Source: Gammaproteobacteria bacterium (GTDB lineage: Bacteria; Pseudomonadota; Gammaproteobacteria; UBA6429; Thiohalophilaceae). From it: a stretch of 64,000 bases of DNA. The notes beneath the pieces are model-generated. The model had not been told where the DNA came from. It did no database searches and was given only the letters and a program-made list of their open reading frames with translations. The translations under genes and the position numbers were made by a program. Location of the stretch: positions 1 through 64,000 of the forward strand of contig JAHECZ010000012.1 in NCBI GenBank assembly GCA_024641475.1, in the 5' to 3' direction. Below are positions 4,225 through 11,933 of this stretch, in pieces (within the stretch, counting starts at the first letter, position 1; every line of letters begins with the position of its first letter).

Positions 4225-4322
4225 AAATACCTCGAAGTTAAGTGGATATCCGTTGACGAAAACATGCAGTAAGATAGAGCTGCAAATCCTGTATGACAAG
4301 TAAAACCAGAAATTCAAACATT

Positions 4323-4857
4323 ATGCCGCAATTACGCACACAACAACTGAGTGTTCAACATGTCGGTCCTGTTGATTTAACAATAGTTCCTGGTGAAATT
4401 GTTTGTCTATCCGGTGCATCCGGTAGTGGCAAAAGTTTAATTCTGCGCGCACTGGCGGATTTAATTCCACATGAAGGCCAGGTGTTTCTGGATGAGATCG
4501 ATGCTCAGCACATGTCGCCCGCGCCCTGGTACGAGGCGCAATATGCGATTCCATTGCTGGGCATGATTCTCGGTAATACCATGGTAGTTGGCAACAACGC
4601 GCGATTATCAAACACGTTTAAGTCCGGGTGAAGACTGGCGCAGCGCGATGAGTCAATTGGTACAAGACAGTGTGCGTACCGGTCAGATACTCGCCGGCAA
4701 TTCGCCGTTCAACGCCGCGAAATATCAGATCATGATCATGTTTATGATTACCGCCGGGACTGGCTTTGCTATTTTATTATCCAGTTGGTTTGCCGCGCGC
4801 CGGTTGTTTGATGAACGACAACGATTACGATTGGAGCGTCTGCGTCCACCGGATTAA
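4323..4857 (+). pseudogene. Decayed fetA-fetB (YbbL-YbbM) iron exporter remnant
   Basis: The first part, from MPQLRTQQLSV at 4323, is an ABC ATPase start with an intact Walker A (GASGSGKS, 4413-4436). It stops resembling an ATPase at MSPAPWY near 4532 and jumps to YAIPLLGMILGNTM, the core motif of the FetB permease. Most of fetA and the first half of fetB are therefore deleted in frame. The reading frame is then lost at about 4590-4630. A shifted frame resumes FetB-like sequence (WRSAMSQLVQDSVR), which runs into TGQILAG with the usual intervening LPGMM segment missing. It ends with KYQIMIMFMI and RRLFDERQRLRLERL at 4857. At least two deletions and one frameshift are needed. FetAB normally exports iron during oxidative stress. 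Confidence 0.85.
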
Positions 4858-10021: not shown

Positions 10022-10144
10022 AAAAACTTGGTGAGCGGTCATGCAGCGGTTGAGCTGCTGACGGGACGCAACCGTCCCGTCGCAGACTCGGTCCGGCCCT
10101 CTGCGCAGGACGGAGAGAACGCCTGCACAGAAGACATGACTTAT

Positions 10145-10531
10145 TTACTTCTTGTCAGCGCCGCACTTGCCTTCAGGCATGGCTTCTTTCTTGTCGCCAC
10201 CGCACTTGCCGTCTTTCATCTTGGCTTTATCGCCACCACACTTGCCGTCTTTCTTCTTGGCCTTGTCGCCGCCGCACTTGCCATCTTTCTTTTTGGCTTT
10301 GTCACCGCCGCATTTGCCATCTTTCTTTTCGGCCTTGTCGCCACCGCACTTGCCTTCAGGCATGGCTGCTTTGTCACCACCACACTTGCCGTCTTTCGCA
10401 TCGGCAATTTGAGTGGTTTGCGCGTTTTGCTGCGCAAACGGATTTTCACTCGCAGAGGCGAGATTGCCGAATGCCAGGCTGGCGATAAACGCGGTACCCA
10501 GGGCGAGGCGGATAATTTTTGTATTGCTCAT
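10145..10531 (-). CDS. HvfA-like low-complexity Cys-repeat peptide, possible RiPP metallophore precursor
   Basis: 128 aa. GGAG precedes the ATG at 10531. A signal peptide ends near ASA-SENPFAQ. From about residue 46 the protein is a 12-residue tandem repeat of the type KDGKCGGDKAKK, with seven KCG units; the first and last variants carry MPEGKCG. Precursors of the HvfA/bufferin kind show the same design: Sec signal, then repeated EGKCG cores. In those, a DUF692 (MNIO) enzyme with a DUF2063 partner converts cysteines into copper-binding heterocycles. No such modifying enzyme is encoded within the window, so this would be an orphan precursor. It could instead be an unmodified metal-binding peptide. 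Confidence 0.65.
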   Translation of the reverse strand: MSNTKIIRLALGTAFIASLAFGNLASASENPFAQQNAQTTQIADAKDGKCGGDKAAMPEGKCGGDKAEKKDGKCGGDKAKKKDGKCGGDKAKKKDGKCGGDKAKMKDGKCGGDKKEAMPEGKCGADKK

Positions 10532-10575
10532 GTGAATTCACTCCATATATAGGTTAGTTACCCCGATTGTTCCGG

Positions 10576-10610
10576 CCGGCGTATAGCGGGGTTAATAGTC
10601 CATACGCCGG
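10576..10610. promoter_or_regulatory. Inverted repeat upstream of the HvfA-like gene
   Basis: CCGGCGTAT (10576-10584) and ATACGCCGG (10602-10610) form a perfect 9-bp inverted repeat with 17 nt between. It lies 45-79 bp before the ATG of the leftward Cys-repeat gene, where a regulator or leader hairpin would act. Confidence 0.45.
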
Positions 10611-10686: not shown

Positions 10687-11406
10687 TTATTCCATGGGGA
10701 GAAGATCACAATCTGCACCAAAGCAGACCTCGTCCCACAGGCCATTAAAATCGATCAGCATGTGGGCTACGACCAGAGGCCAGAGGCGGCGGTAACGGGT
10801 ATAGACATAGAAAAATAAAATACCCATGGGGATGATCGAAATGAGCGCGATCGGTCCCTGGTATAAATGATACAGCAGACGAATCGTTACACTGGTGAAC
10901 AAGGCGAAGCCAAAACCTTGGCGTGCGGCCAGCGCCAGATAAATATACCCGACCACCAGCACTTCTTCATAAAAACCATTGAGCAGCGAAAATGCTGCGG
11001 TGGTTATCACATCGAGTGTGGCGAAGACTTCGTCGGAATACAACGCATTGCTGGCGGGGAAAAATGGTTCGAATATTAATACTAAGGCGGCAAAATAAAT
11101 CAGAAAATCCGCCGCCGCCAGACCAATGCCTGCCAGCGTGGTACGCAGCGTCACCTGTAAATTAAATTGCCATAATTGCCAATGGCGTGTTTTTAGTATG
11201 CCGATAATCAGCAATAGTGCCACTGACTCATAGATCATGATGCTGTAGAGATCCTCGGGACTGGTCGCCAGCGGATCATCGGCAAGTTCGCCATGAAGAA
11301 AATCGCTGAAGCCGAGCAATGAGGAGAAGATAAACCAGCCAAACGCGAGGCTGATGACAAGAAGGAATTCCTGGGTGGGGGAGAGGCGGCGCAATGCATT
11401 CAGCAT
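10687..11406 (-). CDS. CPBP (CAAX protease/bacteriocin-processing-like) membrane protein
   Basis: About 239 aa from the ATG at 11406; a GTG at 11427 is possible. It has seven or so hydrophobic segments. Motif 1 reads NGFYEEVLVVGYIYL: the two glutamates are kept, but the usual arginine (EExxxR) is replaced by valine. Motif 2 is RLLYHLYQG and motif 3 HMLIDF. This glutamic-protease-like family cleaves or modifies membrane-associated peptides. It sits near the Cys-repeat peptide gene in the same direction, but 155 bp apart and with the inverted repeat between them. A processing role is only a guess. Confidence 0.75.
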   Translation of the reverse strand: MLNALRRLSPTQEFLLVISLAFGWFIFSSLLGFSDFLHGELADDPLATSPEDLYSIMIYESVALLLIIGILKTRHWQLWQFNLQVTLRTTLAGIGLAAADFLIYFAALVLIFEPFFPASNALYSDEVFATLDVITTAAFSLLNGFYEEVLVVGYIYLALAARQGFGFALFTSVTIRLLYHLYQGPIALISIIPMGILFFYVYTRYRRLWPLVVAHMLIDFNGLWDEVCFGADCDLLPME

Positions 11407-11510
11407 GCAACTATTGTAATGAAACACAGTGGCAATGTATCGCTTCCGACTAGGCAGATGCCTGCTGCGCGCTATAATGCCATAAACATCCGCTCACCCA
11501 GGACAGATTC

Positions 11511-11933
11511 ATGGCACATCAGGAAATTACTCTTGCCGGAATTGGCATTCGATTTCTCGTGGCGATATTGCTGGTTTTTATCAGTTATAACCCCGAAGGA
11601 TTTTCCTATTTCCATTGGTTGCTCAATACCCAATCCAGCACGCTGGCGGTGAAGCTGTTTGTCGGGATCGCGCTGTTGATCGTTTGGGTGGTGTATGTGC
11701 GCGCCACCTTCAGTTCGTTAGGTGGTCTGGGAATATTTCTGGCGGTGGCCTTTTTCGCTTCGCTGTTATGGGTGTTGACCTACTGGGGGTTGTTGCCGGC
11801 CGGTTCGATACGTGCAGTGACGTACATGGTGTTATTCATTATTGCCGCATTACTCACGGTGGGTATGAGCTGGTCGCATATTCGTCGGCGTATCAGTGGC
11901 CAGGTCGATGTGGATGAAATTGAGGAGCGTTGA
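11511..11933 (+). CDS. DUF6524-like integral membrane protein
   Basis: 140 aa with AGGA 8-9 nt before the ATG. Four hydrophobic helices follow a short N-terminus; the sequence IGIRFLVAILLVFISYNPEG and YFHWLL match a small conserved membrane family I recall as DUF6524. It ends in a basic stretch (HIRRRISG) and an acidic tail (DVDEIEER), consistent with a cytoplasmic C-terminus. Function is unknown. It diverges from the CPBP gene. Confidence 0.6.
   Translation: MAHQEITLAGIGIRFLVAILLVFISYNPEGFSYFHWLLNTQSSTLAVKLFVGIALLIVWVVYVRATFSSLGGLGIFLAVAFFASLLWVLTYWGLLPAGSIRAVTYMVLFIIAALLTVGMSWSHIRRRISGQVDVDEIEER

What the first reader, a model, noticed from the sequence alone, without database searches (positions are those of the whole stretch)
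10145..10531. Orphan HvfA-like Cys-repeat peptide without its modifying enzymes
A Sec-exported peptide with seven KCG units in a 12-residue repeat matches the architecture of HvfA/bufferin metallophore precursors. The DUF692 and DUF2063 genes that normally modify such cores are absent from this window. Either they act from elsewhere in the genome, or a different modification (or none) operates. The repeat number may vary between strains.
Basis: partly seen in the sequence, partly recalled or inferred. Interest (0 to 1): 0.68.

Follow-up and report, generated by a model that had tools for sequence, protein, structure and literature searches.

The report
Copper-peptide precursor that lost its enzymes
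This bacterium and some relatives keep a secreted cysteine-repeat peptide of a copper-binding family although the two enzymes that chemically activate such peptides are gone, which suggests that the unmodified peptide does a job of its own.

Summary
The ORF at 10145-10531 (-) encodes a 128-aa Sec-type peptide with seven KCG units. It passes the NCBIfam HvfA-family domain cut-off. The enzymes are missing from the whole genome, not only from the window: neither MNIO (PF05114) nor DUF2063 (PF09836) is found in the 97%-complete assembly or in its 99%-complete congener.

In this family the usual locus is nth - peptide - MNIO - DUF2063 - DoxX - argG. In the window's genome (a second copy on contig C96), its congener and two genomes of other genera, that locus keeps peptide, DoxX and argG, with MNIO and DUF2063 gone. 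This happened at least three times; the argG tree rejects a single clade (p 0.0002).

The KCG units are kept under purifying selection. The conserved NPFAMxxLxxGYxxLA stretch after the signal peptide is lost: GY in 0 of 5 peptides from enzyme-less genomes, against 48 of 49 elsewhere. In the window's genome three such peptide genes share an upstream element found nowhere else in it.

Best reading: a former RiPP precursor now working unmodified, probably as an exported thiol metal buffer, with DoxX. The loss is shown; the function is inferred. New variant of a known kind.

The parts
10145..10531 (-). KCG-repeat precursor peptide CDS, 128 aa, 7 KCG units
10448..10531 (-). Sec-type signal peptide (residues 1-28, cleavage site inferred)
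   Evidence: read from the sequence; small-residue sites at 27-29; no predictor run
10394..10447 (-). post-signal linker (residues 29-46, ENPFAQQNAQTTQIADAK): NPFA kept, the family's M..L..GY..LA part lost
10148..10393 (-). repeat core with the seven KCG units (residues 47-128)
   Evidence: unit pN/pS 0.06
10559..10591 (-). upstream element CCCC-N-TATA-N-GGGGTA (imperfect inverted repeat), shared only with the two peptide-type genes on contig C96
   Evidence: three matches in the genome, all upstream of these genes
10022..10144 (.). gap downstream of the peptide, where MNIO and DUF2063 lie in operon-bearing relatives; no recognisable remnant
   Evidence: no match better than E about 0.08
10687..11427 (-). 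upstream neighbour, CPBP/Rce1-like membrane protease; not found beside any other KCG peptide examined
11511..11933 (+). DUF6524 membrane protein; its homologue lies beside a complete peptide-MNIO-DUF2063 operon in G015

Best explanation
The peptide is a former HvfA/oxazolin-type RiPP precursor in a lineage that has lost both enzymes (MNIO and its DUF2063 partner) but kept the precursor and the DoxX membrane protein. It is most likely exported by Sec with its seven cysteines unmodified. In the periplasm the repeated KCG thiols would serve directly as a low-structure, metallothionein-like buffer for Cu(I) or other soft metals, working with the DoxX protein encoded on contig C96. Shown: genome-wide absence of the enzymes, precise loss from an otherwise conserved locus in three lineages, purifying selection on the KCG units, retention of DoxX, decay of the conserved post-signal stretch, and an upstream element shared by the peptide genes. 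Inferred: that the peptide is unmodified, that it binds metal, and that it works with DoxX.
For: No PF05114 in G000 (97% complete), G001 (99%), G007 (99%) or G012 (97%), while 30 of the family's 40 genomes have it; no DUF2063 in the same four. Relatives show nth - peptide - MNIO - DUF2063 - DoxX - argG, whereas these four show peptide - DoxX - argG on contiguous sequence. Same-genus sisters keep the enzymes: G021 for G007, G023 for G012. The argG tree needs three changes in all bootstrap trees, and a single clade is rejected, p-AU 0.00016. Selection: pN/pS among the window's units 0.06, with 7 of 8 third positions variable against 1 of 16 first/second positions, p 0.0002. C96 against G001 peptide, both without enzymes: dN/dS 0.12. 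Post-signal GY motif in 0 of 5 peptides from enzyme-less genomes against 48 of 49 from enzyme-bearing ones, including satellite peptides far from any MNIO gene. Three peptide-type genes share an element that occurs nowhere else in the genome. G007 and G012 keep the TGAATC-N-CGTA promoter-like element of enzyme-bearing relatives.
Against: No direct evidence of expression, of an unmodified mass or of metal binding. The C96 copy has lost or failed to gain a unit relative to G001, and its unit pN/pS is 0.59, so some erosion is going on there. G021 has MNIO yet lacks GY, so the motif is not strictly required. The window copy itself has no DoxX beside it. One further genome with no MNIO found (G064, locus L112, completeness unknown) keeps the GY motif. 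The contrast in GY rests on only three independent lineages.
Confidence: 0.6

Rival explanations
1. The unmodified peptide is functional but not as a metal buffer: its thiols serve a redox or sulfur-handling role with DoxX (a DoxX/DoxD-type membrane protein).
For: DoxX is the only operon partner kept after enzyme loss in all three lineages, with constraint between G007/G021 and G012/G023 (dN/dS about 0.2). The C96 DoxX also matches DoxD, the TQO small subunit. A DoxX homologue in another context protects against oxidative or sulfur stress (discussion of PMC12452194).
Against: All characterised relatives of the peptide bind copper (PMC13097082; PMC13419390). Nothing in the window points specifically to sulfur.
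Confidence: 0.2
2. A different, non-MNIO enzyme modifies the cysteines.
For: KCG units are kept under selection, as expected if they are still enzyme targets.
Against: The conserved post-signal stretch, a candidate recognition element, has decayed. No conserved new enzyme gene adjoins both peptide loci; the neighbours are pirin, CPBP and DUF6524 at one and argG, nth and DoxX at the other. Other modifying-enzyme families were not searched genome-wide.
Confidence: 0.1
3. The peptide genes are relics that are decaying after enzyme loss.
For: G001 has one unit with Cys replaced (GKDG), and C96 lacks a unit present in G001.
Against: Window copy: all seven units intact, pN/pS 0.06. dN/dS 0.12 between the two enzyme-less congeners. 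A dedicated upstream element on all three genes. The peptide is retained in three lineages.
Confidence: 0.07
4. The enzymes exist but were missed (assembly gap or extreme divergence).
For: The assembly is 97.4% complete in 131 contigs.
Against: The congener (99% complete, 328-kb contig) lacks them too, and the locus where they should be is contiguous and lacks them in four separate assemblies. DUF2063 is absent as well. The HMM finds the MNIO genes of relatives at E below 1e-70 apart from contig-end fragments.
Confidence: 0.03

Closest known systems
HvfA / oxazolin (Buf_EGKCG) family, 'captophorins'
   Same: Sec-type signal, NPF- stretch, repeated GKCG units; NCBIfam NF050137 above cut-off; locus shared with relatives that carry the full hvf-type operon
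   Different: No MNIO and no DUF2063 anywhere in the genome; post-signal GY motif lost; mostly KDGKCGGDK single units instead of EGKCGEGKCG pairs
Stand-alone bufferin-like precursors in genomes with MNIO elsewhere (e.g. Thiobacillus peptide-DoxX cassettes, L088, L098, L102)
   Same: Two-gene peptide-DoxX layout without adjacent enzymes
   Different: Those genomes have MNIO elsewhere (13 of 14) and their peptides keep the NPFALxxLxxGYxVA stretch, consistent with modification in trans
Buf_EGKCG genomes without MNIO noted by Antoine et al. 2025 (PMC12452194): 67 of 2583
   Same: Precursor gene without MNIO in the genome
   Different: There only a count, with the authors' guess that such peptides need no modification or are dead; here repeated loss at one locus, selection, motif decay and upstream elements are examined
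Metallothioneins and periplasmic copper storage proteins
   Same: Proposed mode of action: unmodified Cys thiols buffering metal
   Different: No sequence relationship shown; different origin

Membership tests
HvfA / oxazolin (Buf_EGKCG) precursor family | Sec signal peptide followed by repeated (E/D)GKCG units | tested here: met
   NF050137 25.6 bits over cut-off 19.5; signal peptide judged by eye only
HvfA / oxazolin (Buf_EGKCG) precursor family | Full-length HvfA equivalog (NF050188) | tested here: not met
   19 bits against cut-off 95
HvfA / oxazolin (Buf_EGKCG) precursor family | Common ancestry with MNIO-linked precursors of relatives | tested here: met
   E down to 1e-21 to family peptides; C96 copy at the orthologous locus
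MNIO-modified RiPP | MNIO (PF05114) in the genome | tested here: not met
MNIO-modified RiPP | DUF2063 / PME1 partner in the genome | tested here: not met
MNIO-modified RiPP | Cys-derived 5-thiooxazole | not testable with these tools
   needs mass spectrometry and UV spectra
hvf/buf operon | DoxX gene in the cluster | tested here: met
   at the C96 copy; not beside the window copy
Metallothionein-like thiol buffer | Binds Cu(I) or other soft metals through unmodified Cys | not testable with these tools
   inference from seven Cys, no other ligand-rich motif

The most novel reading that the evidence does not exclude
A 'de-RiPPed' system: peptide plus DoxX is a self-sufficient exported thiol metal-buffer, reached at least three times in one family by deletion of exactly the two modification genes, so that the thiooxazole chemistry is dispensable for the function under selection.
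Probability: 0.5. Interest if true: 0.75.

Novelty: new variant of a known kind. Interest (0 to 1): 0.58.

Why it matters
Antoine et al. 2025 (PMC12452194) left open whether precursor genes in genomes without MNIO are dead or work unmodified. Here is a natural experiment: sister genomes with and without the enzymes at one locus, with the precursor conserved in both. It gives a direct test of what the modification is for, points to DoxX as a partner of the peptide rather than of the enzymes, and offers a possible genome signature (loss of the GY stretch) for telling modified from unmodified peptides.

Tried and rejected
Relics of MNIO or DUF2063 in the gaps: none (best E 0.03, all short). Loss of O2 as the reason for enzyme loss: not supported, since all genomes compared keep haem-copper oxidase genes. 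AlphaFold of the peptide alone: mean pLDDT 47.6, uninformative, not used. RNA hairpin at the upstream element: z-scores -1.4 to +0.9, no support; a DNA operator is as likely. CPBP protease as a processing partner: no homologue beside any other peptide. Synteny with the MNIO operon beside DUF6524 in G015: suggestive for the window copy having once had its own enzymes, but G001 lacks the DUF6524 gene and the adjacency was seen only in G015, so not claimed. The dN/dS value for argG of G007 against G021 came from a misframed ORF and is discarded; one search's motif count (47 of 48) was a miscount, corrected to 48 of 49.

Full report
What is there. The minus-strand ORF at 10145-10531 encodes a 128-residue peptide with a Sec-type N-terminus, the stretch ENPFAQQNAQTTQIADA and seven KCG units, mostly KKDGKCGGDKAK at a 12-residue period. 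It passes the NCBIfam HvfA-family domain (NF050137) but not the full-length HvfA equivalog. The opposite-strand ORF in the same place is the mirror of the repeat.

Are the enzymes elsewhere? No. The whole assembly (3.16 Mb, 97.4% complete) has no PF05114 and no PF09836 match. The only other genome of the genus (G001, 99% complete) also lacks both while having a KCG peptide. In the family of 40 genomes, 30 have MNIO and 34 have KCG peptides. Peptide without MNIO: G000, G001, G007, G012 (all at least 97% complete) and G005 (71% complete, contig ends at the peptide, inconclusive). Genus g11 and G018 have neither peptide nor enzyme.

The locus that tells the story. G000 has a second peptide on contig C96. 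It lies at the family's usual operon site. In relatives this reads nth - peptide - MNIO - DUF2063 - DoxX - argG (for example G006, G010, G020, G021, G023, G024, G043). In G000:C96 and G001 it reads nth - peptide - DoxX - argG; in G007 and G012 peptide - DoxX - argG, always on one contig. The two enzyme genes are missing, with about 80-170 bp (500 bp in G012) between peptide and DoxX and no relic of either enzyme. Same-genus sisters G021 (of G007) and G023 (of G012) have the full operon. An argG tree needs three changes in every bootstrap tree, and one clade of enzyme-less genomes is rejected (p-AU 0.00016). Given that the four-gene operon is the common state in the family and beyond, loss is far more economical than repeated insertion of the same two genes at one point.

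Is the peptide still under selection? Among the window's units, third codon positions vary in 7 of 8 codons and first/second positions in 1 of 16; pN/pS is 0.06. This could partly predate enzyme loss. The C96 and G001 peptides, which diverged after the presumed loss in the genus ancestor, have dN/dS 0.12 (dS 1.6); five Cys are shared in the alignment. The C96 copy shows some erosion (unit pN/pS 0.59). DoxX is intact in all four, with dN/dS 0.21-0.25 for the two same-genus comparisons.

What has changed. Peptides in MNIO-bearing genomes carry NPFAMxxLxxGYxxLA between signal peptide and core. The GY element (GF once) is present in 48 of 49 examined: 20 of 21 operon-linked family peptides, 5 of 5 satellites in the family, 10 of 10 Thiobacillus-type satellites in genomes that have MNIO elsewhere, and 13 of 13 other operons. 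It is absent from all five peptides of enzyme-less family genomes (Fisher p 2e-6, but only three independent lineages). Exceptions: G021 (MNIO present, GY absent) and L112 (GY present, MNIO not found in a genome of unknown completeness). That this stretch is the enzyme-recognition element is my inference; Antoine et al. report preliminary evidence only that the signal peptide takes part in recognition (PMC12452194).

Regulation. Six enzyme-bearing relatives and the enzyme-less G007 and G012 have TGAATC/TGAACC-N16-17-CGTA upstream of the peptide (background 0.003 per region), an ECF-like promoter by its layout. The genus of the window lacks it. Instead, CCCC-N-TATA-N-GGGGTA ends 25-31 bp before the start codon of the window peptide, of the C96 peptide and of the small gene before it. 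These are the only three sites in the genome. In G001 two of three sites are at the peptide genes; of the few sites elsewhere in the family, the one nearest an operon (G008) lies inside a kinase gene. The pattern was drawn from these sites, so only its exclusivity is informative. It links the window peptide to the C96 cassette as one set of genes.

Mechanism. Most likely the peptide is exported unmodified and its seven thiols bind Cu(I) or similar metals in the periplasm, with DoxX as a membrane partner. The authors of PMC13097082 already raise DoxX as a possible extra factor in copper binding. Metal binding by the unmodified form is inference. Thiol or sulfur chemistry with DoxX is the main rival. 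Anaerobiosis as the reason for loss is not supported.

Known or new. Antoine et al. [quoted passage not shown] This case argues for the first and makes it testable. It is a new variant of a known kind: a relative of the HvfA precursors by descent, but not filed as an MNIO-modified RiPP, because the defining enzyme was tested for and not found.

Noticed in passing
L041:10688-10918 (-) = contig C96 of the window's genome; L042:9204-9430 (+): A third small exported gene upstream of the C96/G001 peptide: signal peptide plus Ala/Pro/Lys-rich tail, ending EEGKCGGAK in G000 and without any Cys in G001; same upstream element.
   Followed up: partly
window 4293-4857 (+): Collapsed fetA-fetB-type transporter: an ABC ATPase start (PF00005) fused in frame to part of UPF0014, then the UPF0014 C-terminus in another frame; looks like a deletion plus frameshift.
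   Followed up: partly
L044:9175-9683 (G012): The 509-bp gap left where MNIO-DUF2063 would be holds a 20-bp perfect inverted repeat around a 52-bp centre, MITE-like.
   Followed up: partly
L088, L093, L096-L099, L102, L104, L106, L113: Two-gene KCG peptide-DoxX cassettes are common in Thiobacillus/Hydrogenophilales genomes that have MNIO elsewhere, some preceded by an ECF sigma gene.
   Followed up: partly
G025 (L046:1255-1533, L050:3715-4053): KCG units replaced by SCG units in stand-alone peptides of a same-class genome that has MNIO elsewhere.
   Followed up: no
upstream of peptides in L043, L044, L056, L066, L067, L069, L070, L071: Conserved TGAATC-N16/17-CGTATA promoter-like element ahead of hvf-type operons of this family.
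   Followed up: partly
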